64,000 nucleotides of DNA from Candolleomyces eurysporus (Eukaryota > Basidiomycota > Agaricomycetes > Agaricales > Psathyrellaceae): the NCBI GenBank assembly GCA_027579435.1, contig JANBPK010001472.1, positions 1 through 64,000 on the forward strand. The letters run 5' to 3'. Position numbers and translations under genes: made by a program. This document shows positions 37,893-60,546 of the stretch, in pieces; position 1 is the first letter of the stretch; every line of letters begins with the position of its first letter. The notes beneath the pieces were generated by a model, which saw only the letters and a list, made by a program, of their open reading frames with translations, ran no database searches and was not told where the DNA came from.

Positions 37893-38789
37893 GATCGAGA
37901 TGTACAAGAAGGGCCGAAGATATTGTGTGTCTCGCCATAGCAGACAGCCCAATACCCCTCAACTATAACACTTACAAACAATGACCCCTAGGTCACAGTA
38001 ATATGCCCGGAGCTGGGAGGTTCGCCATCAGTCGGCAGGACACGGCAACCCACGCCAAACAACAGCGTCCGGCACAGTGAGCTTCACCGACTCTCGCTGT
38101 GCAACACCGTGAGCCGGCGTGATAGGCCATGGGGCGCGAGAGACGACGTTGATCACCGACAATCAACAGTTGTCACCGAGTATTATATCTGAAGTTTCTG
38201 TGAGATGCGCAATTTTTAGTGAGCGAGCATCCTCAGCGAGGTTGTTCAAGAGTAACAATGACGAGAGATGAATTATAGTGAAAGAAAAGTAGAGTGAAAA
38301 TGAATTCTTGAGTAAAAGAGAATATGATAGTCAAAGGAGCATCTTAATATAAATTCGTATTTTAATATAGTATCGCAGACAGTCTGTTGAGCCACCTACC
38401 AGCTTCAAGGGAGTACAAACAAGCTGAACGTACGATTAAAACACGAACTTTGCGTGTCCAATTGAGAGTGGAAGTGGAAGTGTACACACAAAGCGTACAA
38501 AGCAAACGCATGTCCAAGCGTCCAGCGTTGAGCGGTGACAGTCGGTGACAATCAACGACCAACGATGGCCCTGCTTGGTGAGTTCTCACAATACCCGCTG
38601 GAGGCTGAAGGCAAACAGCCATACACGCCGTGCGCCAACAATCACCGGTGCTTGACGATAACCGTCGACGACCCGCGTCGAACTTCTAGGTTACCGGCAT
38701 ATAACTCCTAGGTCAGCCGGTTTATCTCAGAACCCAACGCCCCCGATCCCAACAATGACACGGACACACAGGATCAGTTTCCAGCGACC
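37893..38789. other. Intergenic region between F-box copies 3 and 3'
   Basis: About 900 bp with no gene recognised. It includes the promoter of copy 3. An AT-rich stretch near 38217-38370 separates two GC-richer segments. Confidence 0.35.
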
Positions 38790-39068
38790 TTCTACCGTCC
38801 TTTAACCTTCCTCTGCATCCATCATATCTCTTGTTCACCAGGATGGATTTCCTTGGCGTACAGAAACCGCAAAATGCATTCTGTACACATAATACTCTCG
38901 AGCGGCCGTACGATCTAGTCAAATACGAACTTCAGGCGAGGCGATAACAGTCTCAGTCACAACTACCCAGACAACTGAAAGAGGGTCATCGCTTGAAGAA
39001 CCAAAAGAGCTGGAACAGGATAAGCAATGTACAACTACAGCATATACTAACANGGGCAGAATCGATCC

Positions 39069-40507
39069 CTATGCAAGATATTCCGCTACGTATGCCCGAG
39101 ATTGTCCATCCTCGATGACAGTGTACATGGACCTACAAGCCGACTTGCAGAAAGATATCTTCCGAGGGGCCGTACCATTGTGCAATTTTGTCAGAACCAA
39201 ATCGAGGTATTGAGCCCGCATATCCTCCAGATCCTTGACAAGAGAGTAAATAACGTCCCTGAACCTGGACTCTTGTGGGATTTTATTGTCCTCCAAGTAA
39301 TTTCGAACATGAGTAGTTGACGAATATCCATACTCCAGTCTGCCCCAATGTGGGCTTTGTCTGAATATTAGGAAGAACTCGAAGCGATTTGATGGGAATA
39401 TATAAGCTACCTCGTGTTCGAACTTGACCTCTTGAATCACACTCTTCGAAGGTTCAACTGAGCTGGGGCCAGATGACGATGAGAGGTCGCCGTGGTCATC
39501 CCGAACGACAATGTCCAGGAAGAAACGACGAGCGAGCGTAGGGGGCTCGGATTCGTCGCCAACAGAGGTCAAAGAGGTGAATAAGTCGAGTAAGATTGGG
39601 AGTTTAGTGTTCTGGGAAGAGCCTGGAAGTACGAATCAGATTTCGCATTGGGTCTCGTCATCGTCAAACGAAATGGACCAATCAAGGGAGCGGTCGATGC
39701 ACGGCTGAGGGGGCATCACAGATTCGGCATTGAGATCGTAAGGCAAAGGGGAGCCGGGGATGGGTTCAGTGTTTGCATCCCAAGAGGGTATATACCATAT
39801 GAATATTCCTTCATAGTGGAACCCTATGTAGAGGTTCTCGGTACACATAAACTATAAAAATGAGGCGTGAGTGTTAATGAAGAGCAGGAGAAGAATCGAT
39901 GCTTGGCACAACATACTTGTGATGTCCAGGTACCGATACCAGGTCCCCAGATGTACCGCCCAGCAATGAAATTCCAGGCCAAGACACGTGAATTTGCTCG
40001 AAGAAACAGTCCCTCGCCTAGAAACGAAAGTGCCCACATCCATGCCTCATGATACTCAGTACAGCACCGGATGACGCCTAATTGCTCGAAAGACCGATTC
40101 TCGTGCCGCAAGACGACATCATATACTTTGGCTCTGTACAAGCTGTAGGTGAGCTCCCTGCCACCATGAAGCAAGGGTGCAGGGCATACATCAAATTAGA
40201 CGCAATCGCAACCCGTAAGGTCTCTCCGTCCTCCAGAATCTCAGCAACGAGGTCGCAGATAAATTAGAATTCATTGGGTCTGGAGCTGGGTCTGGCTCAG
40301 CCAGCTCGATCTGGGCTGCGATACGTCCTGCACCGCCTCTCTTTTTGAGGGAGCGCGTACCCGCAGGTCCCAAGTCTATGAGGCACAAGTATCTTGTGCC
40401 CGCAATAAGAAGGAACCTCCCTCCTAGTATCAAGAGGAATTTCTTCATGTCTTCTACAACTTCGTGGGCGAGGTTAACCTTGGAGATCGGTTTGAGCGAT
40501 CAAAGAG
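39069..40507 (-). pseudogene. Decayed duplicate of F-box/propeller copy 3
   Basis: The last three exons can be followed against copy 3. The end YVAEYLA and ISFCKSACRSMYTVIEDG lie at 39069-39160. WNFIAGRYIWGPGIGTW and LGEGLFLRANSRVLAW lie at 39930-40040, and GRFLLIAGTRYLCLIDLG near 40380-40440. Breaks seen: a TGA with loss of several residues near 39633-39640, and a frameshift plus stop near 40262-40290. Everything upstream of about 40507 (exon 1 and the start of exon 2) is absent. Homology continues about 250 bp beyond the stop of both copies, so this was a segmental duplication including 3' flank. An N lies just downstream at 39055. Confidence 0.85.
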
Positions 40508-42083: not shown

Positions 42084-43674
42084 TCAGTTCCCAGCCCACC
42101 CCTTCGGCTTAACCTCCTCCCCCAGCTTCCTCACTCCCAACCAAGGGAGGAGCCCACCCCTCTTCATCCCCTCTTCACCTTCGTCCCAAGTATAACTCGC
42201 CGCCACAGCCAACTTGGTGCCGTCGCAGTTGAAGGCGATCGCAGAGACGGGGTTGGGGTATTTAGGGAATTGACGCAGACGTTTCTTGACTTTGTGGTCC
42301 CAGATGGAGACTGTGCCGTCTGAGCCTGCGGAGGCGAATGTATTGTAGCTGGGGAGAGAACGAATGGGTGAGTATCGTACCAAAGGACAAGGAAAGAAAA
42401 GATACAATAACGGGAACGGGAGGGGAGGGGCGACGAAGAGGAGAGGAAAGAATGAAACACGACGTACACAGGATGGAACGCGAGCGCGTTAACTGGCCAC
42501 ACATGGTCCACCTCTCCAATCGTCTGCCTATGACACTTGAAGGCGTACTTCTTCTCTTGCACGTCGGGTCTTGGATCAAAGTATTCTACGGCGATACGTC
42601 CTTCGACGCTAGCTGTGGCGTAGCCTTGGCCGTCGGGCATACAGGCGAGAGAGCGTGTCATGTATTTGAGAGAGGATTCGCGTTGCTGGGCGGGGGTGTC
42701 TGGCGGGTTCCAGAATCAATTTGTGTTCAAGGTGAGGGGGTGGAATTTGCAGAGAAAAGAGACACATAGGATCTATGATCAGCACACGAACGAATGAGAG
42801 AAGCAGAACGACTAACCCATCTTGCGAATATCGTAAATATGGAAAAGCCTAGAAGCCATCGCAACCACAAGGGTGTTTCCCACAAGATCCAAAGAGTATA
42901 TCCTCTCAGGCGTGGTATACGACGACGTCTGGAATGTCGGCGCCGAACCCGAGGAGGTGGATGGAGTTCGGGGGTCCCAGAAGCGGATGGTGCGGTCCCA
43001 AGAGCCTGTAATCAAGTTATCTGCCGAGAGTATGGTGTTAGACTGTACGTGAGGTGAATAAGGAGGGATAGAACGCACTGGTAGCCTTGGACCAAGCCAT
43101 CGAACTTATACTATCCGAGTGTGTTCCGAGGTGCGTGATCCTCTCAGTGTTCAGATCCAACCTAACCAGGACCAACGAGTGGGCAGACGGATCGGTGTTA
43201 GTACAACAAGCAGAATGGAATAGAAACAGCAACGCACTCTCGAACACCGGTGTCGAGACCCCCAGTATACCCTCTGCTCCCATCCTCGTTGAACGTGCAG
43301 GCAAGCACAGGCGCACGGTGATCAAACTTGGCTTTCTGCTCGCTTTGTCGGCCGGCACCGCTGTTCGGGGGTATGTCGCCCGTTTCGTAGTATCGTACAG
43401 TCTTTATTCGAGCATGGTGAGTGGAGACGAGAGCCGAAGGAGAACGACAAAGAACAAGTTGATTAGTCTAGCCACGGGTGCACGGGACAAGGGGACATAC
43501 CGCATCCCAGCTTGATACGAGCAACAGGTCCGGATTCGTAGGGTGATAGCGGATGGTGGAGATGCTATCCAGAGGCGGGGAAGGGAGCGTGAGCGTCGTG
43601 CTAGGATCGTTGTATTCTGGCGTGGGTGAGTCGTTGAGCAGACGGGAGAGCAGTTTGGTGAGCTTACCTGACAT
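42084..43674 (-). CDS. BUB3: Mitotic checkpoint protein BUB3 (WD40)
   Basis: ATG at 43674; a 52-nt intron follows MSE (donor GTAAGC). Exons then read LPSPPLDSISTIRYHPTNPD, LLLVSSWDA, TVRYYETGDIPPNSGAGRQS, KFDHRAPVLACTFNEDGSRG, YTGGLDTGVRE, LDLNTERITHLGTHSDSISS, NLITGSWDRTIRFWDPR, ERIYSLDLVGNTLVVAMASR, LFHIYDIRKM, YMTRSLACMPDGQGYATASV, EGRIAVEYFDP, KKYAFKCHR, WPVNALAFHPV and TFASAGSDGTVSIWDHKVKK. The end is EGMKRG..GEEVKPKGWAGN. This is the seven-blade BUB3 pattern, with the diagnostic EGRIAVEYFDP and FKCHR segments. It acts at kinetochores with BUB1/MAD3 in the spindle checkpoint. Some borders of small exons are not resolved. Confidence 0.9.
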
Positions 43675-43828
43675 TTTCAGGTGATGTCGATGTTTATTGC
43701 AACTCCCGGGGTATTCAGGACGGATACAAGAGAAACAAGCGTCAGGGAGGTCGAGGCCAACGTGCAAATCCAAATCCATCAACTGCCGCCCATTGTTTGT
43801 TCATGCTAGGACCAAGGGGTATTGGGCT

Positions 43829-43898
43829 GTCGCATGCGCTCCACGCTTAACTTCAACTTGGATTCGTATACTAGCTTCCGTCAACAGCCCCAACGCGC
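43829..43898 (+). pseudogene. Fragment of F-box/propeller exon 2
   Basis: GCGCTCCACG and CTTGGATTCGTATACTAGCT match, with scattered changes, the exon 2 start of the F-box family. The best partner is the copy at 48931-49011, which has CTTGGATTCATATACTGGCT. It sits 75 bp outside the left arm of the large inverted duplication. Confidence 0.65.
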
Positions 43899-44604
43899 AA
43901 TCTTGCATATATTTGCACGCCTTTGCAGACCGCGTTCTCACCGGGATCAAGGACAGAGACAAGGTTTCGTGGACTCAATGAGAAGACTTCTCCGTCGCGC
44001 TTCCCCTTTTAAACCCAAACACATACAAACAGTCTACCGTCCAATCCTCAGCTTCAGGTTGCAAGTGTCTAAGCGCACATAGTGGCGAAAGGACACCAGA
44101 ATGAACGACCGAAGCGTGAAAATCTCGTCCATATCTTCCTCCTGCTATCTTAAAGACTCCGTTTCCCCCCTGAGTTGTTCACGGGAGGACTCGAACTTGG
44201 TCCCAAAGTAGGTTCCAGGAGAAGGCGAAGCAGCTTTGCGAACTATGCTGTCCTTCTAAGCCGCGCACACGGCCCCCACTATCCTATATCGTTCAAGCGA
44301 CGCTTCGACAGAAGACTTCTGTGCGAACTTCGACAATCTCCGCAGTGCACGTGTGGTCTGGAACCTGAAAAATACCACACAAGATCCCATTCATTTCTCC
44401 TCCTGTTGGCCTATTTCTCTGCGATTGTCGGCTTAGCCTAGTGGGTGCCCAATTGTACCTGGAAACCTTCGCTATGGTGATTTCCTGCGCCTGAGAATCC
44501 GGGCATCCTTATCATCCTTTTAAAATGACCTTCGATCTATACTTGGGCGTAGGCACTCGTTGTCCCTCTCCGCCATCTGCCCATCCGCGCTGCTATCCCG
44601 CATT

Positions 44605-47119
44605 ATGGAAAGTTTATCCAGAGGGGAAAAGTTCCTTGACGTCGCCTCAGACGAGAAGATTACCGCCATAGGCTCACCCCAACCCCCGTCCTTCAATCCG
44701 GAGGCTGAGAGGCGACTTCTGAGGAAGCTCGATTGGATTCTTTTGCCAATCTTCATCGCCATCGGTGAGCATCGCGTGTTTTGTCGCCAAAACCGTGCTC
44801 CTCACTTACCGGTTTCCGCCTTGACCATAAGCCTGTTGTAACTTCATTGATCGGTGGGTGCCCGTATGACGCTCAAAACCATGCTCAACTGATTTGAGTC
44901 TTGACAACCGATTCATTTTTGTCAGAACGTCCATTGGTAAGAGAGAAAGTTTAATTTAGCTTGACCCCATAAGGCTATCTAACCTCGGGGGTCTTCACAA
45001 GGAAATGCTCGAGTTGCAGGTCAGTATGCAGTCTTTGTCACTTTTGTTTCCGTCTTACCTGCGACAGGGATGGAAAGCGACTTGCAAATGAGGCCCTTCG
45101 ACCTGAACATTGCGTTGACTGTGTTCTATATCTGTGTAAGTCCTCTGATTTCTCCGCGAAAGACTGTTTCTGTGTATGTACTCACGTCCACCCAACTATA
45201 TATCTTGAAGTATTGCTTCGCAGACATACCATCTAATCTCGCTCTCAAACACTTTGGGTCGGTTTGGCTCGCACTCACTGTTATTGGATTTGGTGTCATT
45301 ACACNTTTTTTCGGCGTTCCTTCGTGATAGGACAGGACTTCTTGTGAATAGAGCGTTCCTTGGTCTATGCGAAGGTGGAACTTTGGTAAGTGAATTCCAT
45401 TTGAATTACGAGCAGCCCACTTACAGATGTTTTGATAAAGTCGGCCCTGATGTACATTATATCAAGGGTACGTCTCGCATAGTCTGTACCCCAGCCCGTT
45501 TCTGATTAATCCCTGTCTAGTATTATCGCCGACACGAGCTTATGCTACGGGTAGGGATATTCTTCGGAGTGTCTCCAAGTCTCTCCGGCGCTTGTAAGTG
45601 GCTTCAACCAATCACCCTCAGGTATTGTAACGACGAAGACTGACTGCGGATATTGGGTTCGTATAGTCGGCGGATTGTTGGCTTCTGGTCTGTTGAAATT
45701 GCCAGACATGGGCATTGTGACATCCTGGAGGAAGGTACGTCGGTCGATTTGCTAACCTCAAGTTTTTTGGGCTAAATCTGGGCTTCAGATATTCCTAATC
45801 GAAGGTATCGCACCCTCGAGAGTTCATTCTTTGTCAAACCCTAACCACTTCGGCTATACCTAGGTCTCATCACGGTGATCTTTGGGCTCTTACTTCTGGT
45901 TATCTGCCCCGAAGATCCGAACAAGTCGAGAATCCTCAACCGAGAAGAGAGGGCACTTGCGATAGCCCGTATCGATGCAGATCAGGTCGTTAAAACGCAA
46001 GGTCAGAAGGAGAAGACGACTCTGCGGCTTGTATTGAGGTCATTCAACTTCATTGTCAGTGCTTGTGTCTTCCTCTATGAACACACGTTGGATCGAGCGT
46101 CGAATGCTAATTGAGTTTGCCAGACGATTTCGTGCACAGTGTGCTACATTATGGTGAATATGTCGTTCCAAGGCCTCAGCTTGTTTATGCCAACTGTTAT
46201 CAGATCACGTACGTCCACGCTATTCCTTGTATGAACATATATCTAAAATTGAGCTACTAGTGGGGAAATACAGTCAGTAAAACCAGCCGAGCTTCAACAC
46301 CTGGAAACGACTCTTACTCATTGATCCTACCAGGCACGGTCGAAGTACAACTCCGCACAGTGCCACCCTACGTCGCAAGTGGTACCTGGGTAGTAATTAA
46401 CGCATATATCAGCGCTCGCATCAAAAAGAGGTTTATTCCTCTCCTTTTCAACACGATGCTTATGATCGTTGGTTACATCCTGGCGTTGGAGACAAGAAAC
46501 TTACACGCGAGGTGAGTCAAGGTCCAAATTATCCATCGTAGGGTCAACATCCTGTGCGTCTGATAAACGGCTTCCACTCCATTCACACACTCTACTCTAT
46601 GCAGATACGCCGCGTGCTTCTTGATAATGATGGGAGCCTCAGTCTGTGGTCCCGTGGTACGTGCCCGGTGGTGCTACCCCTTCCTCTTTGCCTTCCTCCT
46701 GACTATACACGTCTGTTCCAGATCCTTACATGGGGAACAGACAACGCCTCACCGGATACGATGAAAGCTGTCGCCACTGCGGCAATACCGGGATTCGGCG
46801 CCATCGGTTCTATCTTGGCGTACGTTCACTCTTCATCTCTCCGTTTGCCTTGTAACTCACGGGTTGCATTGGCGTAAATTGCTTCAACAGTGTGTGGACA
46901 TATTCACCAACCGACGCACCCGACTTCCGAAAAGGAAACATTGCTAACATTTCGGCGATTTCCGCTGTGTGCGTCATCGTCTCCATCACTGCCGCATACA
47001 TACACTGGGAGAATGAAAAACGGGAAAGGGGTGAAAGGGATTACCGCTTGGCCGGGCAGACGGGCGAGGAGCTGTTGAAATTGGGGTATAGGCATCCACA
47101 GTTCAGGTATCAGATTTAA
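44605..47119 (+). CDS. MFS transporter, Dal5/allantoate permease-like, copy B (left arm)
   Basis: Start MESLSRGEKFLDVASDEK; a string of short exons follows. RKLDWILLPIFIAI and NFIDR lead to RTSIGNARVAG and MESDLQMRPFDLNIALTVFY, the signature of the anion:cation symporter family. Further blocks are IPSNLALKHFGSVWLAL, RTGLLVNRAFLGLCEGGTL, YYRRHELMLRVGIFFGVSPS, LITVIFGLLLLVICPEDPNK, VPPYVASGTWVVINAYISAR and YAACFLIMMGASVCG. The tail is EELLKLGYRHPQFRYQI. The N at 45305 shifts the frame, but the right arm lacks that base (CTTTTTTCGGCG directly), so the N is spurious. The substrate is unknown; relatives carry allantoate, ureidosuccinate or nicotinate. Tail-to-tail with the lectin at 47395. Confidence 0.85.
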
Positions 47120-47394
47120 CACGCGAGAAATGGATAGCGCCTTTTTTGTAGGAAAACTGCTCACTGCTCGAATTATGTGACTTTGTAACAGTCTTCTTGG
47201 AACTCATGGCAGCGCGATCCGCTAAAATAGGAATAGGCTCGAGACACGAGAGAACTAGGCAGCCAAATACTGAAATACAGAGATATTGTACATTTGTGTC
47301 CTTCGACTCATAACCCGAAGAAGCCGTCTCGAAACCGGATAAACGAACTAAGATGTATGGAATAGAATCTGCAGAGATAGCTGGTATGGGACGT

Positions 47395-48108
47395 TTACAA
47401 GGTCGCGGACCAAACCTGATTCGCGTTGTTATCGGTGCAGGTCCAAATTTGAATGGGATTCCCGTTCAAAAGCTTGCCATCAGTAAGGTCGAGACAAAAT
47501 CCTGTGAACAAGAAGTCAGTGTGGTATTCCTGAGATAGTGGGGGATAAATGAGAAAAGAGGTTCTTACCGTGGCCATTGATTGCAATCCTGTCATCGTCG
47601 GTGTAGTACCATTGTTGGGCTTCGACATCGACACACTCCCAGATCTTCACCTTCGCACCATCGTGGAAGGGAGCTATGCAAAGAATGTTCAAGTGATCGT
47701 ACCAGAAGGGATGCACGATGACACGTACGATTACCTGCGTCCAAACAAAAGTTGTGCGGACCCGCCACTCGGATTTTGGTGCTTCCACGTTCGAGGTACC
47801 AATTCTGCGCATCGCTGGCGTTACAATCGTATCTGTAATAATTGGGCAGTACTATGTGAGCAACAATCTCTTCCCAAGTTCATTCGCACGAACACCTGGA
47901 CGGGTGTGCCATTTTCGAAGATGGCACCTTTGACATCCACGCACTTGCTAGGATTGGTATATCTCGGGTGGATGCGATGAATGGGGGAAACAGGGACTGG
48001 TGGAGAGGAGTCGAGAGGTATCTGGGAGACCTCACTGGCCAAGGCCCCAGTCTCAAAAAGAACAAAAAGAGGAAGGACGACGCTAATGATCTTTGAGAGT
48101 TTTAACAT
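47395..48108 (-). CDS. Secreted ricin B-type lectin, left arm copy
   Basis: Four exons give about 175 aa. Residues 1-25 (MLKLSKIISVVLPLFVLFET) form a signal peptide. Then come a YTNPSKCVDVKGA start, DAQNWYLERGSTKI, NFCLDAG, KIWECVDVEAQQWYYTDDD and FCLDLTDGKL, with the end QIWTCTDNNANQVWSATL. The repeated Q-x-W strand ends and the CLD turns are the beta-trefoil carbohydrate-binding pattern. The first intron donor here is GTTCGT, whereas the right copy has GTGAGT, so splicing of this copy could be weaker. It is a lectin domain only; no enzymatic or toxic chain is present. It probably binds glycans in the wall or outside the cell. Confidence 0.85.
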
Positions 48109-48665
48109 CGCGGGTCGTCAGCAAGTTTGTGGTAGGAAGTAGGTCGAAAATCGGTCAGTTAGACAAGTCCAGTCGGTTCTCTGTCCTTTATACTTCCCCA
48201 CCGCAGACGGTATTTAGCCCCTAGACCCGTATGACCGCGTTCGTAAATAGGCCGCCTACACGAGGTATAATAAACTTCCATGACAGGGTAGTTGCATCTA
48301 CTTTACTGGGTATAAAACGTGTCATGTGGCTAATTTATCAAACACGCTTTTCCGAGTCGAAGGCGAACTGGTCAGTCAACAGTTGATAGAGAATGAATGG
48401 TAGCCATCATAGGATACATGAACCCGGGTTTGCAATTTTGAGTCAGATATGCCTTTGAAGTTCTGAATGGTTGCGCCACTCCGATATGAAGGGACCCAAG
48501 CACGTTCTTGGACCTTGCTGAAGCGAGCAAGCGTGTAAGTCTTGGAACTAGAAGAGCCTAGTGTTGAAGGCCTCAAGAGTGGAAAGACGTTTAAGCCTGG
48601 AAACATAGCGCGATGAAATCTTGCATCCATCGTTGGGTAGTGTAAGGATTACAATAGTGGACGGT
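48109..48665. promoter_or_regulatory. Lectin upstream region inside the left arm
   Basis: 557 bp upstream of the lectin start, duplicated in reverse at 51053-51606. Repeat identity remains high here, so promoter elements of the two lectins should be nearly the same. No motif assigned. Confidence 0.4.
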
Positions 48666-49011
48666 GCAGCTTTGGAGCAGCATATTTTCCTTGCTATTTC
48701 ACCGAAATATCCTCTCCTTGACCTCGATGAGGTCCGCCTTGGTGGTCGTCAACAAGCACATCGCTGATACGATGAACCACAGACCTGCAGCGCGGAAACT
48801 CAAGGCTTACCACTGGAGCTTTGGGACAGCATAATTTCCTTGCTATTTGACATCCTCTCCTTGACCTCGGTGAGGTCTGCCACAGCTGTCATCAAAGAGC
48901 ACATCACTATTACAATCAACCTCATACCTGCCGCGCGCTCCACGAGATTCAGGGCTTAAAGGTAACTTGGATTCATATACTGGCTTCCGTCAGCCAGCTC
49001 CAGCGCGTGGC
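48666..49011 (+). pseudogene. Two F-box/propeller exon 1-2 fragments in tandem
   Basis: The first copy begins exactly at the inner edge of the left arm and encodes LWSSIFSLLFHRNILSLTS, like LWSTIISLLSHQDILSLTS of copy 3. It continues through the intron to CACAGACCTGC. About 145 bp later a second copy begins (TTGACCTCGGTGAGGTCTGC) and runs into exon 2 (CTTGGATTCATATACTGGC). Both are plus strand, opposite to the intact copy 3. Confidence 0.8.
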
Positions 49012-50272
49012 AAAAGGATCGACGTACCATTGGCCCAGCCCCGCGGCACAACTATCCGTAGACCTAAGCTTGAGATTAGTCGGGTTGGAAATTCTTGAAT
49101 TGTGGTTTCCTTCAACGAGGTCATGCGGATTTCGGCTAGTTTGTCAAACTCCGCGTCGGTGTCGAACCTTTTAATGTCTTCTCCCAGCCTAGGATACACG
49201 CAGCAAAAATGTGGCAATTCTCCAGTGAAGTTGCAGAGACGTTCCGGAGAACAGCAAGCCCAGTGCTACTCTGCGTCTTTTCCGGAGCCCAGAACGTCGT
49301 CAACCACTACTGCAAATCATTAAACCTAGGCATCGTCGACATGTCGAGGATCTTCATGACCGGACTATGAAACAAACTCGCATCGCGATGGCATCTTTCC
49401 TCGATCCACCAACATCTTCGGTAGTAAGGGTTAGGTTTAGCAGTTGGCTTCTTGATGTGCAAAGAAACGCATTCGAGAGACGGAAATGTGTCTGGACCTA
49501 TACTTGATCGGAAGAAAACCCAGAACAGGGGGGAGTAGTAGTACAGCTGCCCCATGAGTGACCTCAGCCTAGCGATAGGAGGGGTATCGCCCAATCTGAT
49601 GGGGAGAGGTTTCAGAATATTCCAGAATAAATAGTTTTACCTTTGGATGATGTCCTGCGGCTCGTCGGGTTGTGGTTCTGTCTCCAACCCGTCCATGTAT
49701 ATAGAGGGAGAGTCTTGGATCCCTTCACTGAGATCATAAACGAGGTGGCCAATAATTCGATTTTTCCTTCCAAAACCTCCGCCCCCGGTGCCTGGTAAAG
49801 GTCGTTTTGGACGCTGGATGATGATGTGGTTCCACAGGCTGAGATAGTTGCGGGCCACGCGTCTCCATTGTCTGGATAGGCGCAGAAAGGAGAAGGGAGG
49901 AGTGTCGAGTGCCAGTCCAGACGGCACGTGGTCAGTGACACTAGATGCTGGAGTTTCAACGCTCCTGGTAAACTTCACCGTTTGGATGTAGTCGCAAAGA
50001 AAGAGAGAATATCTCGCCGAGAATGTCGTCTGGGACCTTTCGGATGGGAGCTAGCAGGCTCTGATACTGCTCCAACGCTTCTTGGTGTTGAGATCTCGCC
50101 TAGAGTCGCTCATCGAGGCTAGAGGGGGGTCTTTCGCACTCGGGAAGTTGAGACGAATGATTGCTGATTCGTGTGCTCGAATGATATCCTGAATTTGGTG
50201 GAGTTCTTGTTCGTTCCCAGGGTAGTAGTTCTCTTTGAAGTAAAGGAAAAACGGGGAATAAATAGGTCGCAT
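49012..50272 (-). pseudogene. Classical F-box protein, broken
   Basis: The N-terminal part reads ELHQIQDIIRAHESAIIRL, the coiled-coil lead typical of agaricomycete F-box proteins. It continues in another frame as LLAPIRKVPDDILGEIFSL, the F-box core, and in a third as FLRLSRQWRRVARNYLSLWN, the second half of the F-box with its LW. At least two frameshifts separate these parts. Downstream only pieces such as DAEFDKLAEIRMTSL remain (near 48990-49217), between several stops. It is unrelated in sequence to the propeller-like family. It fills most of the spacer between the inverted arms. Confidence 0.7.
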
Positions 50273-51052
50273 GGTAGCTTAAATGATAAGGATGTGGCGA
50301 TGGTGGTCGCGGTTAGAGAATAAAGTTGAAAAAATCACCGTGTTTGGTCATGATGGGTCATGACAGTTCTAAGAATGGTCGTCAATGAGCAAACTTGGGA
50401 ATGGGGGAAAACTTTCCAGAGGCCCGACGAATGGATGAGGTATTGGGCAAGAAAGCCAGTCAGGACTTGGAGGGTGTCATGAAATGGAAGGTGAACGTGC
50501 GAGAACTCGAGTCGCTTCTAGTTTGATAGATTAGGTAACATGCGCAGGCTGAGATACGATTCTTGGATCCAAGTACAGTGATATTCCAGAGATTTGGACT
50601 CTGTTTTCCTTTCCTTCTGGCAGTTTATACGCGCGGTAGCATCCGCAAGGTGAGATCAATTCGTCGAAAGCGAAATCGGATCTTCGTACGAAATCTAGCT
50701 GTTATAGAAGAGCCAAGGCTCGCGGGCTCGAAGGAACCAGACCTTGATAACACCAAGCCTAAACAAGTCACTCGATGTTTTCGTGATGCTCAAGAGCCAT
50801 GACCACTTGCTGTCATGAAAAGGCGGTTCCATAGCTCGAGTACGTAGTGCTATCGTACACGGTGTCGTAATACTGAACACGCTCCTCGGAATTCTTTACC
50901 TTCCGACTACATAGTTCCTCAAATATAGCACCTACACTGATCGCCTGACATCGATCACCCCAAACGAGGTATGTGCACACCAGTTGTCACTGGCCCTCCA
51001 AATAAGTACAAGGTTCATCTGGAACACCTCTAGAGCGCTTTACGATTCGGCC
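50273..51052. other. Rest of the spacer between inverted arms
   Basis: 780 bp with only short frames. One (about 50940-51060, +) has protein-like composition but no family I know. No repeat recognised. Confidence 0.3.
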
Positions 51053-51606
51053 GTCCACTATTGTAATCCTTACACTACCCAACGATGGATGCAAGATTTC
51101 ATCGTGCTATGTTTTTAAGCTTAAACGTCTTTCCACTTTTGAGAACTTCAATATGGCTCTCCTAGTTCCAAGACTTGCGCGCTTGCTCGCTTCATAGCAA
51201 GGTCCACGAACGTGCTTGGGTCCTTTCACATCGGAGTGGCGCAACCATTCAAAACTTCAAAGGTATATCTGACTCAAAACTGCATCCCCGGGTTCATGTA
51301 TCCTGTGATGGCTACCATTCATTCTCTACCAACTGTTGACTGACGAGTTCGCCTTCCTAGGAAAAGCGTGTTTGATAAATTAGCCACATGACTCATTTCA
51401 TACCCAGTAAATTAGGTGCAACTACCCTGTCATGGGAGTTGATTATACCTCGTGTAGGCCGCCTATTTATGAACGCGGTCATATGGGTCTGGGCGCTAAA
51501 TATCGTCTGCGGAGGTGGGAAGTATCAAATGCAGAAAACCGACTGGACTGGTCTAACCGACCGATTGTCGACCTACTTACTACCACAAACTTGCTGACGA
51601 CCCGCG

Positions 51607-52324
51607 ATGTTAAAACTCTCAAAGATCATTAACGTCGTCCTTCCTCTTTTTGTTCTTTTTGAGACTGGAGCCTTGGCCAGTAAGGTCTCTCAGATACCTC
51701 TCGACTCCGCTCCACCAGTCCCTCTTGCCCCCGTTTATCGCATCCACCCGGGATATACCAATCCTAGCAAGTGCGTGGATGTCAAAGGTGCCATCTTCGA
51801 AGATGGCACACCCGTCCAGGTGTGAGTGCGAATGAACTTGCGGAGAAATTATTACTCACATAATACTGTCCAATCATTACAGATACGATTGTAACGCCAG
51901 CGTGGCGCAGATTTGGTACCTCAAACGTGGAAGCACCAAAGTCCGAGTGGCGGTTGCGCCAAACTTTTGTTTGGACGCAGGTAATCGTACGTGTCATCGT
52001 GCATCCCTTGTTTCTGGTACGATCACTTGAACATTCTTTGCATAGCTCCCTTCCGCGATGGTAGGAAGGTGAAGATCTGGGAGTGTGTCGATGTCGCAGC
52101 CCAACAATGGTACTACACCGATGATGACAGGATTGCAATCAATGGCCACGGTAAGAACCTCTTTTCTCATTTATCCCCCACTATCTCAGGAATACCACAC
52201 TGACTTCTTGTCAACAGGATTTTGTCTCGACCTTACTGATGGCAAGCTTTCGAACGAGAATCCCATTCAAATTTGGACCTGCACCAATAACAACGCGAAT
52301 CAAGTTTGGTCCGCGACCTTATAA
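51607..52324 (+). CDS. Secreted ricin B-type lectin, right arm copy
   Basis: Same four-exon plan and signal peptide as the left copy (MLKLSKIINVVLPLFVLFET). The first intron has a good donor (GTGAGT). Residues differ in the first trefoil unit: VAQIWYLKRGSTKV here against DAQNWYLERGSTKI on the left, so one Q-x-W stays but with a changed middle residue. KIWECVDVAAQQW and the end QIWTCTNNNANQVWSATL are kept. Gly-Pro-His-Asn before FCLDAG is replaced by Val-Ala-Pro-Asn. The frame is intact. The upstream region is nearly the same as in the left arm. Confidence 0.83.
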
Positions 52325-52599
52325 ACGTCCCACGCCAGCTATCTCTGGAGGTCGAATTCTATCCCATACATCTTAGTTCGTTTATCCGGTTTCGAGACGG
52401 CTTCTTCGGGTTATGAGTCGAACGACACAAATGTACAATGTCTCTGTATTTTAGTATTTGTCTGCTTAGTTCCCTCGTGTCTCGAGCCTATTCCTAATTT
52501 AGCGGATCGCGCTGCCATGAGTTCCAAGAAGACTGCTACGAAGTCACATAATTCGAGCAGCTATCTTTAAAATAAAAGGCTCTATCCTTTTCTTGCGTG

Positions 52600-55104
52600 T
52601 TAAATCTGATACCTGAACTGTGGATGCTTATACCCCAATTTCAACAGCTCCTCGCCCGTCTTCCCGGCCAGGCGGTAATCCCTGTCACCTCTTTCCCGNT
52701 TTTTTATTCTCCCAGTATATGTATGCGGCAGTGATAGAGACGATGACGCACACAGCGGAAATCGACGAAATGTTAGCAAGGTTTCCTTTTCGGTAGTCGG
52801 GTGCGTCGGTTGGTGAATATGTCCACACACTGTTGAAGCAATTTACGCCAATGCAACCTGTGAGTTACAAGGCAAACGGAGAGATGAAGAATGAACGTAC
52901 GCCAAGATAGCACCGATGGCGCCGAATCCCGGTATTGCCGCAGTGGCGACAGCTTTCATCGTATCCGGTGCGGCGTTGTCTGTTCCCCATGTAAGGATCT
53001 GGAACAGACGTGTATAGTCAGGAGGAAGGCGAAGCACCACCAGGCACGTACCATGGGACCACAGACTGAGGCTCCCATCATTATCAAGAAGCACGCGGCA
53101 TATCTGCATAGAGTAGAGTGTGTGTGAATGGAGTCGAAGCCGTTTACCAGACGCACGAGATGTTGACCATACGATGGATAATTCGGACCTTGACTCACCT
53201 CGCGTGTGTGTTCCTTGTCGCCACCGACAGGATGTAACCAACAACCATAAGCATCGCGTTGAAAAGGAGAGGAATAAACCTCTTCTTGATGCGAGCGCTG
53301 ATATATGCATTAATTACTACCCAGGTACCACTTGCGACGTAAGGTGGCACTGTGCGGAGTTGTACTTCGACCGTGCCTGGTAGGATCAATGAGTAAGAGT
53401 CGTTTCCAGGTGTTGAAGCTCGGCTGGTTTTACTGACTGTATTTCCCCACTAGTAGCTCAATTTAAGATATATGTTCATACAAGGAATAGCGTGGACGTA
53501 CGTGATCTGATAACAGTTGGCATAAACAAGCTGAGGCCTTGGAACGACATATTCACCATAATGTAGCACACTGTGCACGAAATTGTCTGGCAACCTCAAT
53601 TAGCATTCGACGCTCGATCCAACGTGTGATTCATAGAGAAAGAAAAAAAAGCACTGACAATGAAGTTGAATGACCTCAATACAAGCCGGAGAGTCGTCTT
53701 CTCCTTCTGACCTTGCGTTTTAACGACCTGATCTGCATCGATACGGGCTATCGCAAGTGCCCTCTCTTCCTGATTGAGGATTCTCGACTTGTTCGGATCT
53801 TCGGGGCAGATAACCAGAAGTAAGAGCCCAAAAATCAATGTGATGAGACCTAGGTATAGACGAAGTGGTTAGGAGCTGACAACGAATGAACTCTCGAAGG
53901 TGAGATACCTTCGATTAGGAATATCTGAGGCCCAGAATTAGCCCAAAAAGCTTGAGGTTAGCAAATCGACCGACGTACCTTCCTCCAGGATGTCACAATG
54001 CCCATGTCTGGCAATTTCAACAGACCAGAAGCCAACAATCCGCCGACTATACGAACCCAATTTCCGCCGTCAATTTTCGTCGTTAAACTACCTGACGGTG
54101 ATTGGTTTAAGCCACTTACAAGCGCCAGCGAGACTCGGGGACACTCCGAAGAATATCCCAACCCGTAGCACGAGCTCGTGTCGGCGATAATACTAGACAG
54201 GGATTAATCAGAAACGAGCTGGGGCACAAACCATGCGAGACGAACCCTTGATATAATGTACATCAGGGCCGACTTTATCAAACATCTGTAAGTGTGCTGC
54301 TCGTAATTCAAGTGGGATTCACTTACCAGAGTTCCACCTTCGCATAATCCAAGGAACGCTCTATTCACAAGAAGTCCTGTCATATCACGAAGGAACGCCG
54401 AAAAAAGCGTAACGATACCAAATCCAATGACAAGGAGTGCGAGCCAAACCGACCCAAAGTGTTTGAGAGCGAGATTAGACGGTATGTCTGCGGAGCAATA
54501 CTTCAAGATACATAGGTGGGTGAACGTGAGTATATACACAGCAATAGTCTTTTGTGGAGAAATCAGAGGACTTACGCAGATGTAGAACACAGTCAACGCA
54601 ATGTTCAGGTCGAAGGGCCTCATTTGCAAGTCGTTTTCCATCCCTGTCGCAGGTAAGACGGAAACAGAAGTGACAAAGACCGCATACTGACCTGCAACTC
54701 GAGCATTTCCTTGTGAAGACCCCCGAGGTTAGATAGGCATATGGGGTCAAGCTAAAGTACTTTCTCTCTTACCAATGGACGTTCTGACAAAAATGAATCG
54801 GTTGGCAAGACCCAAATCAGTTGAGCATGGGTTGTGAGCGTCATACGAGCACCCACCGATCAATGAAGTTACAACAGTCTGATGGTCAAGACGGAAACCG
54901 GTAAGCGACGAGCACGGTTTGGTGACAAAACACGCGATGCTCACAGATGGCGGTAAAGAGCGGCAAAAGAATCCAATCCAGCTTCCTCAGAAGTCGCCTC
55001 TCAGCGTCCGAATTGAAGGATGGGAGCTGGGGTGAGTCTATGGCATTAACCTTCTCGTCTGAGGCGACGTCAAGGAACGTTTCCCCTCTGACTGAGCTTT
55101 CCAT
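52600..55104 (-). CDS. MFS transporter, Dal5/allantoate permease-like, copy C (right arm)
   Basis: Mirror copy of the transporter at 44605. Start MESSVRGETFLDVASDEK at 55104, end KHPQFRYQI at 52600. NIALTVFY, YIPSNLALKHFGSVWLAL, VTLFSAFLRDMTGLLVNRAF, LLLLVICPEDPNKSRILNQE and YVASGTWVVINAYISAR are retained. The exon 1 end differs: ILLPLFTAI here against ILLPIFIAI. A donor GTTCGT replaces GTACGT near 54245. The N at 52699 is an extra base beside a T-run when compared with the left arm (CCCG then five T). No certain inactivating change is seen, so it is scored as a gene. Confidence 0.8.
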
Positions 55105-55885
55105 GGTGCGGGATAGCAGTGCGGATGGGCAGATGGCGGAGAGGGACAATGAGTGCCTAATGTCAACGTTTGAGAGACATAAGAAGGATATATACCAGAT
55201 ATCATCAAAGATACTCGCCCAAGTATAGATCGAAGGTCATTTTAAAAGGAGCATAAGGATGCCCGGATGCTCATGCGCAGGAAGTCATCATAGCGAAGGA
55301 TTCCAAGTACCATTGGGCACCCACTACGCTAAGAGCCGACAATCGCAAAGAAATGGGCCAACAGGAAGAGAAATGAATGGGGTCTTGTGTGGTATTTTTC
55401 AGTTGCCAGACCACATGTGCACTGCGGAGGTTGTCGAATTTCGCACAGAAGTCTTCTGTCGAAGCACAAAGCTGCTTCGCCTTCTCCTGGAACCTATTCG
55501 GGACCAAGCCTGTGTCCTCCCGTGAGCAACGCAGGGGGAAACGGAGTCTTTAAGATAGAAGGAGGAACGAGAGTTTCATGCTTTGGTCGTTCATTCTGGC
55601 GTCCTTTCGCCACTATGTGCGCTTAGACACTTGCAATCTGAAGAGGATTGGAAGGTACCCACGGAACAGGGAAATGTGGGATTGTTTGTATGTGTTGGGT
55701 TCAAAGGGGGAAGCGCGATGTAGAAGTCTTCTCATTGAGAAGCGCGTCCATTCTCCATTCTCATTCCCCGAAACCTCCTCAGCTATGCACACACACACAC
55801 AGCTTATGTAATTTACCTCACCAAGATATAGGTGTGCACCTCCATATAGGACAAGGACGTTGCTGATGCGGTCAGGCCCATAGCC
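55105..55885. promoter_or_regulatory. Outer end of right arm and junction
   Basis: The promoter side of transporter copy C up to 55740, then about 145 bp of unique DNA with a short (AC)n run at 55788-55800. The next recognisable sequence is the F-box/propeller pseudogene. Confidence 0.4.
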
Positions 55886-57350
55886 CTGCCGCGTGTACGA
55901 GAATCAGAAAACGAATAGGGTCTCCTTCCTGACCTCTGTCAGCGACGAGCAAGGTCTCTACCTCCCATCGTTCCCCCTCAATGAGATGGACATTGACCAG
56001 CTTCAGTGTGCGGCCAATGGGCGATTGTTCCTTTGCCCAATTTTGTTAAGGAATTCAGGGTACAGATATCTTGTATATTCTATGAATTAATCGTGCAGCG
56101 ATGAACTCTCCCCATATGCCGAGATCGCTCAAGCCTCAGGCTTCTCGATTCCTCAAACCGGTCTCAAAGACCCCCTGGCTCTGGAAGTCTAGGGTATGAG
56201 CCGATTCCTTTAGTACCTGACTGGGGCAAGGCACCTTATGGTTGCAGACCCACATTTCCTCAGGTAGACGGACTTGGGCATAGACAGCATCAGAGTCCAT
56301 TGAAGGACAAAAAGTAGCGCCTTTGACGTCATTGCGCAGATTGGAGCATGTTGTACCGGAATCATCGAGGCCGGATGAGTTCAAGTTTATTTCCGACCTC
56401 ATTGCTGACAGTCAAGATGGTGGAGAGACCTTACCTGTTGGGGTAGCATCCAACTTGATGCACGTGCCATCCCCCTGCTTTATGGCATGTGCAGAGCCAA
56501 AGTGGACGACACGCCATTCTTCAAACAACTGCCAGGAGTCGCCCAATTCGACGCTCGGTATGGCATGCTTGTGAACTGGGCGACACAAGCTGTACTCACC
56601 GCTTAGCAATCTGTTTGCCCATTGACCATGCCTCTCTAATAGGCTTATTGTCCCAGTCTTTGTGAGTCAGGAACCTTTACATCGTCTCCACAGACGCATA
56701 TGGTATACTCCTTGGGATGCGAACGCCGAACTTCACCCTCCCCATTACCCTACATGCCTGATCATGACGATAACATACCCTCGTAGCTACGGATCGCCGC
56801 TCCGTTTGACGATCAACCTGGATCACGAAAGGGTTGCCCCTTGAATCCTTCCCATGATACCAAAATCCCTCTCTTGCTACACATGTTCTACATCCTCATC
56901 TGACTTACATTGCCCAGATGACGATTTGTAGTACGAGATGAAGGCGTATTGCAAGTTCCTTTCGAAGCTCGTCGAGTCATTCCCTTGGGACAGACCAGAT
57001 CCTTCTCCAGAAATACTCGAACTTGGACCGTCCACTAGCATTGTTGGAATGACTTTCAAGGGGGCACAATCCCACTCGAGCAGAGGTTTAGAATCTGCTC
57101 CCTCATCTACCCTCAGAGAGACGGGGAAGACGATGACGACAATGACTATGAAGAAGAAAAGGACGAGAAGGGGAGGATGCATCAAGGTGCTCCAATATGG
57201 TTGTTCGACCTACGATTTGGCTTTGACGAAACTTCATGGTGAGGTTATCCAGTCGATTTCTTTTTGAAAATCAGCTTGCAGGTCGGTCACCGGTATGCTG
57301 TCATTGAGGATAGAGCAACAAGATCATATGTAGCAGATTACAGCAACCGA
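55886..57350 (+). pseudogene. Decayed F-box/propeller copy, its last codons split by a MITE
   Basis: Exon 2 begins CRVYENQK and reads QGLYLPSFPLNEMDIDQLQC, parallel to QGLYPPLFPTDVMDVSQLQR of copy 3. Later pieces are SRPDEFKFISDLIADSQDGG (56370), AKVDDTPFFKQLPGV (56495), IWYTPWDAN (56700), YDLALTKLHGEVIQSISF (57215) and YAVIEDRATRSYVADY (57295-57340). Several stops and frame changes lie between, and exon 1 is not found. After VADY the MITE at 57341 interrupts the sequence; TATCTCCC follows the element at 57963, so the family's DYL ending resumes on its far side. Confidence 0.85.
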
Positions 57351-57962
57351 CGAAACGATAGACCCACTTTACAGAAATCACTGTAGTTGATCTTGTTTAG
57401 TTGTGGAGCTGTACAAACAAAACTATACCCAATTCAGTAGGCTGCATATCATTCTATCTTGACAAGCTCTGGTCGAAAGTCAACCACCATCATGTACCAG
57501 TGCGTCATTGAATATATACCCCAGGCTAATATGTACAACAGCACTATCAATTTCTCACTTCCCTCAACTTCAAGCATGGGCAATCGCCGTCATATTTCCA
57601 AAGGTGTGAAGGAGCAACTCGTCGTGATGTCTGCGTACATGAAACCTAAGAAAGTTGGTTGAACATGCACCTTGCACCCAATTAAAAATTTATCCTATCC
57701 CTAGCTCCGTGTGGGATCCATGGAGAAAGCAGGTTGCTTGGATCCGGCGACGACACTGAGCTGTTGGTTGAGAATGGACGCGCTGCTGGTTGGTGGTTGA
57801 GAATGGACGTGTTGCTGGCTTGTGGTTGAGAATGGACGCGCTGGTTGAGAATGAAACGCAGCCTACTAAATTAGGCATAGTTTTATTTGTACAGCTCCAC
57901 AACTAAACAAGATCAACTACAGTGATTTCTGTAAAGTGGGTCTATCGTTTCGTCGGTTGCTG
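57341..57962. mobile_element. MITE copy 1 with ~105-bp TIRs and TA target duplication
   Basis: Left arm 57341-57446 and right arm 57858-57962 are inverted copies with about five mismatches. The ends read CAGCAACCGACGAAACGATAG. TA stands on both sides (57339-57340 and 57963-57964). The interior includes a short minisatellite (57765-57853). No transposase frame. TA duplication suggests mobilisation by a Tc1/mariner-type transposase. Confidence 0.88.
57765..57853 (+). repeat. Minisatellite inside MITE copy 1
   Basis: GGTTGAGAATGGACG recurs three times, spaced by about 31 bp, followed by a partial fourth unit (GGTTGAGAATG). The units differ by one or two bases. Confidence 0.8.
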
Positions 57963-58044
57963 TATCTCCCTAGGTACATCCTGAGTGCTCAGAGGCCCAG
58001 TTCCTCCTCCGTCCTTATTCGGGCAGAAAGTACGAGACTGATTA

Positions 58045-58254
58045 CAGCTGGTCCGAAAACGATAGACCAGATCGTGTTTTGTTCCGGCGCCTTTGATATT
58101 TGTTTGGTTGTTGGGCACTGACGTAGCCAACCAAACACTCAAATGTGGCATATGGTTGACGATTGAATGGAGGCAAGTCGCGTACACGGTAGGATTTCAT
58201 GAAGCTTTCTTTGTTTGTAAGGCTCCATAAAACGCAATCTGGTCTATCGTTCTG
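58045..58254. mobile_element. MITE copy 2, same family, TA target duplication
   Basis: The ends are CAG..AACGATAGACCAGAT on the left and its reverse complement on the right, closing in TCTG. TA flanks both ends (58043-58044 and 58255-58256). 210 bp. The interior shares GATATTTGTTTGG and ACTCAAA with copy 3. Confidence 0.85.
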
Positions 58255-58861
58255 TAACGCAAGACGGAATGGTGGTGGCCACATATCTATGTTGCTCATC
58301 ACTTCACTTGAACATGCTATTTCTTCGGGTGGTGCTTTTGTGTTCGGTTGGAGAGGGTGAGAACGATTACCGATTTAAGTCGACATTGAGTCCGGAATTG
58401 AGTTTGTTGAAGATACCGGAAATGGATGAGACCCACGATAGCGATTAGGAAACGAGAGACCCGTTTCGCCTCCATTTCACTAAACTAAAGCTCATATTCT
58501 CACGATCGGCTTGAAGTACAGACGATAGACGTGCATGAGTTGCGGCATTAGAGTCCTCCTTCACGCCGTGAACCTAGCTCCCCTTGGCATTTGTTTACTT
58601 TTAGAATGGACAAACAACCTGTTTGGAAATTGGCCGGGTACCTGGGCGATCTAGAGGACAACGGAGACCTCCAAATCGACTCGGAGCTCGGTTTTGAGTG
58701 TCTATCAGATTGTTCGGCTCTAAAACTGACTAAAATCATGAAGGGAAACGAATATAGTTTCCTAACAGAAGTAGCCCCTACTAGAGTGTTTCAGAGCCCC
58801 ACCTAATTTAAAAGGAGAGGAGAGTATCTGGTCTCTCAATATCTTTCACCCCCCGAGAAAA
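58255..58861. promoter_or_regulatory. Upstream region of F-box copy 4
   Basis: About 600 bp. A frame at 58591-58806 (+) is short and has no known domain; it ends just before the gene and is not called. A TTTAAAAGGA sequence at 58807-58816 lies about 50 bp before the ATG and may serve as a TATA-like element. Confidence 0.35.
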
Positions 58862-60546
58862 ATGCAGTCATCCAGCTTTCTTGATTTACCCGTCGATCTC
58901 CACCTGAACATATTGTCTGAGTTGCAGCCCCAGAATCTCGTCGAGCTAGGGAAAGTAAGTTTGACGCTCAATAACAGGGACTTTAAACGATTGACGAATC
59001 ATCCGGTTGGGCTAGACATGCAGGCAGATGCGTCAAATCATCGACGAGAAAATTGTCTGGACTGCGGCCCTACACCGTACATGTCAATCACACAAACTAT
59101 TCAAGCCGTCTTTCCCCATCGAGTTGATGGACGTACGCGATTTGAAGCGCGCTGCACTAGGGCCTAGTCTCCTGGACAGCATGTTACCCAAAGCATTGCA
59201 TACAGAGGGCTACAGGTACCATTCCCTTGTACCAGAAGCGGAGACGACGCTCGTCCGGCCATCGAGCCAGTATAGCAGTACCACGGAGCCCAACCGCGTG
59301 TTCCTCATCCCCGGAGGTCGCTACCTTCTTGCCACTACGAAGTCGTCTTTGATGCTTTGGGATTTGGGCCCTGCCGCGATGGTGTCGAGGGGCGATTGCC
59401 CACAACCTGTGATGCTCGAAACCATCGGAATCAGTGGCTTGTTCCGCATGTCGGTTCCAACCATCCACTGCCCTACAACAGTCTGGTTTATCCTCGCCAT
59501 TCATACGGGGGATGGGCATGCAATACGGTGAGTTGTTACGACACTCGCGCATGTTCAGTGGCTCATACCTTTTCCTTCCATTCATTAGGCTCGTCGCCTA
59601 CGAGCTCGGGCCCATCCCACGTCTTCGACGGCTAGCCGAGATAACCCTCAGATTGTCTCAAGCGAAACATGTCTATCTACGCTGTATTCAAAATGGTATC
59701 GCCTATTTCCAAGTGGAAGGTGCATTCGGTGCATGGAACTTTGTCCATGGCCTCTGTGCATCATGGAGTGGCCCTACGGTAGACCGAGTGAGTAGCTCCG
59801 AATCTCACCGTTTTGCACGACTCAGCTATAATTATTAGCTCTTTGTGACTCGAGATCTCCTCGTTGGCATCGACGTTTCATCCGGAGTTTTGGCATGGAA
59901 AGTTCCTCCTCTGCACAAAGTGGATATAGATGGACTTGGGATGGAGCTTGACGAACTCACTGGTTTCCTCGAGCCATGCTGGGTTGTCAACTATGGGTCC
60001 CATCATGATAAAACCCAAGAAGTCGCTCCTTTTGATCTTGAAGGTGACGTCTTTGGACCGTCGAGAGACGTAAACCCAGAGTCAGGATCGCCACTCACTT
60101 TTATTTATCATCTAATGGGCCAGTCTGGCGAAGATCCTGGCTTATACAGCGCCTTATGGAGGTTCAAACTTGAGATTGCGGACGATCTCAACAGTGCTCG
60201 TCTAACCAAATCCGGTGAAACAGAACAGGTCTTCCTGCACCCTTCCATGTCCGGATTACCGTCCTCTGTTCACCACTCGATCTCGTTTCGTCACGTATTG
60301 ATGATGGCCACGGGATCTGGCCAGTGGCCTAAACTCTTTCATGGGGCCCTGCTCTCGGAAGATGATCGATATCACCGTATCAAGTGGAACATGGTGTTTA
60401 TCAACGTGAAGCATTCAACGGACTTGGTCGAAGGGGCGAGTCTTTGCCAGGCGTCTGGGAGACTAGTGTACATCTGCAATTCCAAGCTGAAGCACGCAGA
60501 TCGCCAGAACGGGATGCACGTCGCTGAATTGTTGAGCCGGAGGTAG
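58862..60546 (+). CDS. F-box-like / propeller-like protein, family copy 4
   Basis: Exons 58862-58954, 59028-59527, 59589-59787 and 59839-60546 join to 499 aa with phases 0, 2 and 0. The F-box-like start is LPVDLHLNILSELQPQNLVE. It continues with FPIELMDVRDLKRAAL, FLIPGGRYLLATTKSSLMLW then DLGP, RCIQNGIAYFQVEGAFGAWN, VTRDLLVGIDVSSGVLAWKV and ISLCQ-like ASLCQASGRLVYIC. The C-terminus is VAELLSRR in place of DYLA. Exon 2 begins at the second of two close AGs; the first would shift the frame. This is the only intact member on the plus strand and it lies between two MITEs of one family. Likely an SCF adaptor. Confidence 0.83.

What the first reader, a model, noticed from the sequence alone, without database searches (positions are those of the whole stretch)
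43973..55740. Large inverted duplication of a transporter + secreted lectin module around F-box debris
Two arms of about 4.69 kb in opposite orientation, separated by 2.39 kb, each carry a Dal5-like anion transporter and a ricin-B lectin, tail to tail. The arms keep introns, UTRs and promoters and differ by scattered substitutions (5 in about 104 bases in the exon I compared). Both lectin and transporter copies appear functional. Such near-palindromes are prone to recombination and gene conversion. The fixed pairing of an uptake permease with a secreted lectin suggests the two may be selected together.
Basis: seen in the sequence. Interest (0 to 1): 0.78.

Follow-up and report, generated by a model that had tools for sequence, protein, structure and literature searches.

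The report
Inverted gene-pair duplication in a mushroom
A mushroom genome carries two mirror-image copies of a 4.7 kb stretch holding a transporter gene and a secreted sugar-binding protein gene; it looks like a real but ordinary gene duplication whose copies are slowly diverging.

Summary
Inverted arms 43973-48664 and 51051-55740 are 93.5% identical over 4,590 aligned bases with 26 indels, separated by 2,386 bp. Each carries a 17-exon MFS transporter and a 4-exon R-type lectin, tail to tail. The contig is C460 of Candolleomyces eurysporus H1R20. Haplotype joining is unlikely: the flanks differ and haplotig pairs match at 97-99% in their main blocks. Best reading: a segmental inverted duplication, probably in the C. 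eurysporus lineage, of an older neighbour pair; one low-divergence tract suggests gene conversion. 'Both functional' is partly supported: the transporter is constrained (dN/dS 0.37), but the left copy took 24 of 28 polarised changes, each copy holds one unresolved N, and the lectins show no constraint (24 nonsynonymous, 6 synonymous). 'Fixed pairing' is not supported genome-wide: of 14 contigs with lectin matches and 15 with transporter matches, only C460 has both; C. aberdarensis has one apparently adjacent pair. A known kind; low interest.

The parts
43973..48664 (+). left arm of the inverted duplication
   Evidence: BLASTN and global alignment with the right arm, 93.5% identity
51051..55740 (-). 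right arm of the inverted duplication
   Evidence: same alignments
44605..47119 (+). left MFS transporter gene (TL), model of 17 exons including ones of 11, 12, 16, 18, 22 and 27 nt; one N at 45305
   Evidence: spliced model, intron ends; 87-88% protein identity to two C. aberdarensis proteins
52600..55104 (-). right MFS transporter gene (TR), model of 17 exons; one N at 52699
   Evidence: PF07690 at 113 bits for the part before the N
47395..48108 (-). left R-type lectin gene (LL), 4 exons, 176 aa, hydrophobic N-terminus (by eye)
   Evidence: model same as annotated H1R20_g14118 = P0001; PF00652 at 91 bits for a 174-aa variant
51607..52324 (+). right R-type lectin gene (LR), 4 exons, 176 aa
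   Evidence: model; PF00652 at 89 bits for a 174-aa variant
48665..51050 (.). spacer between the arms; no close copy found in the genome apart from its match to the 37.6 kb gene
48665..49084 (+). fragment like the gene at 37464-37847 (called F-box by eye), with an internal repeat of 143 bp spacing
   Evidence: no Pfam match for 48768-48959
42084..43800 (-). left outer flank: BUB3-like WD40 gene (H1R20_g14117)
   Evidence: P0144, 96% identity over 95% of a hand-joined query; WD40
55878..56508 (+). right outer flank: diverged relative of the 37 kb gene
   Evidence: tblastn 36% and 55% identity
45944..46343 (+). tract of low divergence between the arms, candidate gene conversion
   Evidence: 7 mismatches in 400 columns, permutation p 0.0002

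Best explanation
A segmental inverted duplication. A stretch of about 4.7 kb that probably already held an MFS transporter (Dal5-like) and a secreted single-domain R-type lectin as neighbours was copied in opposite orientation 2.4 kb away, most simply in the Candolleomyces eurysporus lineage, in a neighbourhood that holds several copies and fragments of an F-box-like gene family. Since then the arms have drifted apart to 6.5%, with perhaps one short gene-conversion tract in the transporter. The right transporter stays constrained, the left evolves under relaxed or altered constraint, and the lectins diverge at about a neutral rate. Shown: arms, gene models, divergence, trees. Inferred: timing of the copy, conversion, relaxed constraint. 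Not known: which arm is the original, and the breakage mechanism; fold-back or template switching after a break would be the usual route (general knowledge).
For: Arms with differing flanks at all four ends. No other close copy of arms, spacer or left flank was found in the 65.9 Mb assembly. Five haplotig comparisons (four contig pairs, two of the five overlapping) match at 97.0-98.8% in their main block, against 93.5% here. LL and LR are sisters (99/98); joining either to the nearest C. aberdarensis lectin is rejected (p-AU 0.009, 0.008), as is joining TL or TR to either C. aberdarensis transporter (p-AU 0.00004-0.003). Site patterns: 14 for TL+TR against 1 and 2; 9 for LL+LR against 1 and 1. 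The neighbour pair seems to exist in C. aberdarensis. Constraint. Around the tract (45943-46430) introns have 5 of 182 and exons 6 of 306 differences, against 58 of 834 and 72 of 1,176 in the rest of the gene.
Against: The TL+TR branch itself is weak (58/23), and the tested pairings were named after the first tree was seen. C. aberdarensis also has two close transporters, 92.7% alike, about as far apart as TL and TR (92.1%), so an older duplication homogenised in each species is not excluded. One haplotig pair (L034/L035) has further blocks at 88.8 and 93.5%, and a third lectin locus (L023) matches L021 and L022 at only 88.5-90.2%, so divergence between kindred loci in this assembly varies. 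The tract is one region picked from the data; its longest identical run (p 0.067) and the 150-column scan (p 0.096) are not significant. No reads were seen.
Confidence: 0.8

Rival explanations
1. Older duplication in an ancestor of these Candolleomyces species, the copies kept alike inside each species by repeated conversion between the inverted arms (concerted evolution).
For: Both species have two close transporters that cluster by species; the first 53 residues of the two C. aberdarensis copies are identical (by eye); a low-divergence tract exists here; a sister grouping of the two C. aberdarensis lectins is not rejected (p-AU 0.13).
Against: The two C. aberdarensis lectins are only 76% alike; few sites group TL or TR with one particular C. 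aberdarensis copy (1 and 2); orientation and junctions in C. aberdarensis were not seen.
Confidence: 0.15
2. Assembly artefact: two haplotypes of one locus joined head to head.
For: The assembly retains haplotigs and has 12 Ns at homopolymers in this window.
Against: Main haplotig blocks are 97.0-98.8% identical, the arms 93.5%, though secondary blocks of one pair are at 88.8 and 93.5%; the outer flanks of the two arms differ; no stretch over 122 bp is identical, so even short reads should tell the arms apart.
Confidence: 0.03
3. The transporter and the lectin are a functional module, duplicated because both are selected together (for example, the lectin binds a polymer whose breakdown product the transporter takes up).
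For: Apparently adjacent in two species.
Against: No second contig with both was found in this genome; no sign of constraint between the lectins; accelerated change in the left transporter.
Confidence: 0.07

Closest known systems
Segmental inverted duplications (fold-back inversions), e.g. those studied in yeast after double-strand breaks (PMC10622511; search listing with the start of the abstract)
   Same: Two arms in opposite orientation around a unique spacer.
   Different: Here the event is old (6.5% divergence) and its breakage mechanism cannot be read from the junctions.
Chromosome palindromes with arm-to-arm gene conversion (PMC3403216, PMC7023750; search listing with the starts of the abstracts)
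   Same: Inverted gene-bearing arms, and a tract of lower divergence that suggests conversion.
   Different: The listed abstracts link such palindromes to sex chromosomes and to conversion; these arms differ by 6.5% overall, so conversion has been local at most.
Fungal Dal5-like MFS transporters
   Same: PF07690; best NCBIfam profile TIGR00893 over 54-448; 66-73% identity for P0026-P0037.
   Different: Substrate unknown; all NCBIfam scores are below their cut-offs.
R-type (ricin-B) beta-trefoil lectins
   Same: PF00652 at 91 and 89 bits; three QxW repeats (by eye); match to the lectin part of a xylanase, 1isv, at E 3.3e-16.
   Different: A lone domain of 176 residues with its leader, without an enzyme part.

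Membership tests
segmental inverted duplication | two homologous arms in opposite orientation in one contig | tested here: met
segmental inverted duplication | flanks of the arms not homologous to each other | tested here: met
   alignment falls to noise at all four ends
segmental inverted duplication | junctions crossed by single reads | not testable with these tools
   no reads available
gene-converting palindrome | tracts of unusually low divergence not explained by coding constraint | tested here: inconclusive
   one tract, low in introns and exons; longest identical run p 0.067, 150-column scan p 0.096
transposon-borne duplication | arm ends repeated elsewhere in the genome or bearing terminal repeats | tested here: not met
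   no further close copies of arm ends found (that search skips very common words); no shared terminal repeat by eye in the junction letters
MFS transporter | MFS_1 domain above its cut-off | tested here: met
   113 bits against 33.4, right copy up to its N
Dal5-like anion:cation symporter | transport of an organic anion | not testable with these tools
   no assay; subfamily profiles below cut-off
R-type lectin | Ricin_B_lectin domain above its cut-off | tested here: met
   91.3 and 89.2 bits against 29
R-type lectin | sugar binding | not testable with these tools
   no assay

The most novel reading that the evidence does not exclude
A mushroom palindrome that homogenises a transporter-lectin pair by arm-to-arm conversion separately in sister species, so that the copies look younger than they are, while one transporter copy escapes and diverges.
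Probability: 0.12. Interest if true: 0.45.

Novelty: new member of a known kind. Interest (0 to 1): 0.2.

Why it matters
It is a clear example of a gene-bearing inverted duplication in a basidiomycete and a small test case for conversion and unequal fates of paralogues. It does not reveal a new system. The homopolymer Ns may also have hidden genes from annotation: the protein lists show BUB3 (g14117) and the left lectin (g14118) of this contig, but none of the 120 transporters listed (of 448) is from it, and the right lectin is not among the 23 lectins listed.

Tried and rejected
Haplotype joining: rejected on haplotig identity and flanks, with the reservation that one haplotig pair has secondary blocks at 88.8 and 93.5%. 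Transposon carriage of the arms: no repeat found at the ends. Synteny through BUB3: in C. efflorescens the BUB3-like protein (MD484_g8053, contig 43,359) and the lectin (g4622, contig 162,165) are on different contigs, and none of the 120 listed (of 1,436) is named C. aberdarensis, so the ancestral place stays open. F-box-like fragments near three of the four arm ends (43815-43882, short and weak; 48665; 55878) suggest but do not show a role in the break. A GTGGAC motif lies both just outside the left arm's outer end and at the arms' inner end (by eye), which could be chance. Paper searches: Candolleomyces + genome (23 papers, 15 listed); ricin B lectin, permease, inverted duplication, any 2 of 3 (20, 10 listed); inverted duplication, gene conversion, fungi, inverted repeat (9, all listed); ricin-type lectin and mushroom terms, any 3 of 4 (196, 8 listed); micro-exon + Agaricomycetes (0); conversion and palindrome terms, any 3 of 4 (17, 8 listed). 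None of the listed titles names this locus. Of PMC12786890 I saw 12 passages; of the other papers only listings.

Full report
What is there. The window is the first 64,000 bases of contig C460 (187,397 bp) in a 65.85 Mb, 1,296-contig assembly. The left lectin's 176-residue model is the same as H1R20_g14118 of Candolleomyces eurysporus, whose contig is also 187,397 bp long, which names the organism. A published comparison gives 70 Mb for the GenBank C. eurysporus assembly and calls it and two sister assemblies fragmented (PMC12786890, passages seen).

The duplication. Arms 43973-48664 and 51051-55740 face each other across 2,386 bp. Aligned end to end they show 299 mismatches in 4,590 bases (93.5%) and 26 indel events. 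At all four ends similarity stops abruptly. Divergence by class: transporter exons 5.3%, transporter introns 6.2%, lectin exons 5.6%, lectin introns 6.6%, the flanks within the arms 7.9 and 8.5%, the stretch between the two stop codons 9.3%.

Genes. In the left arm the transporter runs forward (44605-47119) and the lectin backward (47395-48108); the right arm is the mirror image. The transporter model has 17 exons, six of them of 27 nt or less (11, 12, 16, 18, 22, 27), all introns GT-AG in both arms. The C. aberdarensis protein P0024 carries the residues of five of these six small exons; at the 12-nt exon both C. aberdarensis proteins read a longer stretch that resembles the intron beside it, while P0026 and P0034 fit the short reading (by eye). 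Each copy contains one N beside a homopolymer, as do all 12 Ns of the window, so they probably mark uncertain run length; the frame continues on either side. Pfam gives MFS_1 for the right transporter up to its N and Ricin_B_lectin for both lectins, scanned as 174-residue variants.

Not two haplotypes. The assembly keeps both haplotypes at some loci: five comparisons from four contig pairs (two of the five overlap) match at 98.8, 97.8, 97.0, 98.7 and 98.6% in their main block; the 97.0% pair has two further short blocks at 88.8 and 93.5%. In the same call a further lectin locus (L023) matches L021 and L022 at 88.5-90.2%, which I take for a paralogue without having shown it. The arms are more diverged than the main haplotig blocks, have different outer flanks, and are identical over no more than 122 bp at a stretch. 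No other close copy of the arms, the spacer or the left flank was found. On the right flank (55741-60500) the listed matches elsewhere fall in two repeated stretches only, with 40 of 80 candidates scored. Distant transporter paralogues lie on C1238 among others.

Age and relatives. The nearest proteins are in C. aberdarensis: transporters g12914 (90% to the right copy) and g9447 (85%), lectins g9446 (79% to the left) and g11272 (72%). Trees were built from 15 transporter rows (the two here and 13 of the 120 listed relatives) and 8 lectin rows (the two here and 6 of the 23 listed relatives, one cut, one with an odd stretch in its annotation). The two lectins here are sisters (99/98) and pairing either with g9446 is rejected (p-AU 0.009, 0.008); a grouping of the two C. 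aberdarensis lectins is not rejected (0.13). The transporters cluster by species: the C. aberdarensis pair at 99/96, TL with TR only at 58/23; each of four cross-species pairings is rejected (p-AU 0.00004 to 0.003). These pairings were named after a first tree had been seen, which weakens the p-values. Site patterns agree: 14 for TL+TR against 1 and 2; 9 for LL+LR against 1 and 1. The simplest account is a copy made in the C. eurysporus lineage; the similar divergence inside C. aberdarensis (92.7% against 92.1%) leaves an older duplication with concerted evolution open.

Fates. Between arms the transporter has dS 0.107 and dN 0.039 (35 synonymous, 43 nonsynonymous; p 0.00005 against neutrality), the lectin dS 0.053 and dN 0.061 (6 and 24; p 1.0); the two genes differ from each other at p 0.026. 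Of 39 residues compared that differ between TL and TR, 28 can be polarised with C. aberdarensis: 24 changed in TL, 4 in TR (p 0.0002); 11 cannot. Only 2 of the 24 hit sites conserved at 90% or more among 118 relatives, and 4 of 24 bring a residue not seen there, so TL looks relaxed or altered rather than plainly dead. Both lectins keep three QxW repeats (by eye). The left lectin's first intron donor is GTTCGT where the right has GTGAGT.

Conversion. Mismatches in 100-base bins are over-dispersed (variance/mean 1.71; mean of 5,000 shuffles 0.93, maximum 1.82). The lowest 400-column stretch, 45944-46343, has 7 mismatches (permutation p 0.0002); scans of 250 and 600 columns give p 0.001 and 0.0004, one of 150 columns 0.096. 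Around it (45943-46430) introns have 5 of 182 and exons 6 of 306 differences, against 58 of 834 and 72 of 1,176 in the rest of the gene. This is what a short conversion tract would leave, but the region was picked from the data, and the longest identical run is not significant (p 0.067).

Pairing. Lectin matches (E up to 0.01) lie on 14 contigs of this genome and transporter matches (E up to 1e-6) on 15; only C460 is in both lists (these searches score only the best candidates). Among the listed fungal lectin relatives I saw, by eye, no shared contig length with a listed transporter except g9446/g9447 (120 of 448 transporters listed). The pairing is therefore known here from this locus and one sister species, and joint selection is not shown.

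Verdict. A real, correctly located inverted segmental duplication of a kind well known in eukaryotes (general knowledge), of interest mainly as a test of conversion and unequal paralogue fates.

Noticed in passing
57335-57967: An element of about 630 bp with 117-bp inverted ends (95%), beginning CAGCAACC and flanked by TA (by eye), beside a diverged relative of the 35.9 kb gene (57214-57341); eight copies elsewhere of 88-99% identity cover nearly its whole length. It looks like a non-autonomous DNA transposon (MITE).
   Followed up: partly
44832-46272 and mirror 53438-54878: The transporter model contains exons of 11, 12, 16, 18, 22 and 27 nt, kept in both arms; C. aberdarensis g9447 lacks residues of some of them, perhaps skipped by annotation.
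   Followed up: partly
35842-40499: Tandem pair of F-box-like genes (name by eye), 82.9% alike over a 1.3 kb piece and 79.8% over a 0.24 kb piece.
   Followed up: no
window, 12 places (e.g. 7464, 25793, 35302): All 12 Ns in the window are single and sit beside homopolymers, which can break gene models in this assembly.
   Followed up: partly
L021/L022, L028/L029, L044/L045: Pairs of contigs match at 97.8-98.8% over the compared 2.7-3.2 kb, so the assembly seems to retain haplotigs.
   Followed up: partly
63356-63715: DUF1996 gene fragment on the minus strand (PF09362, 68.9 bits).
   Followed up: no
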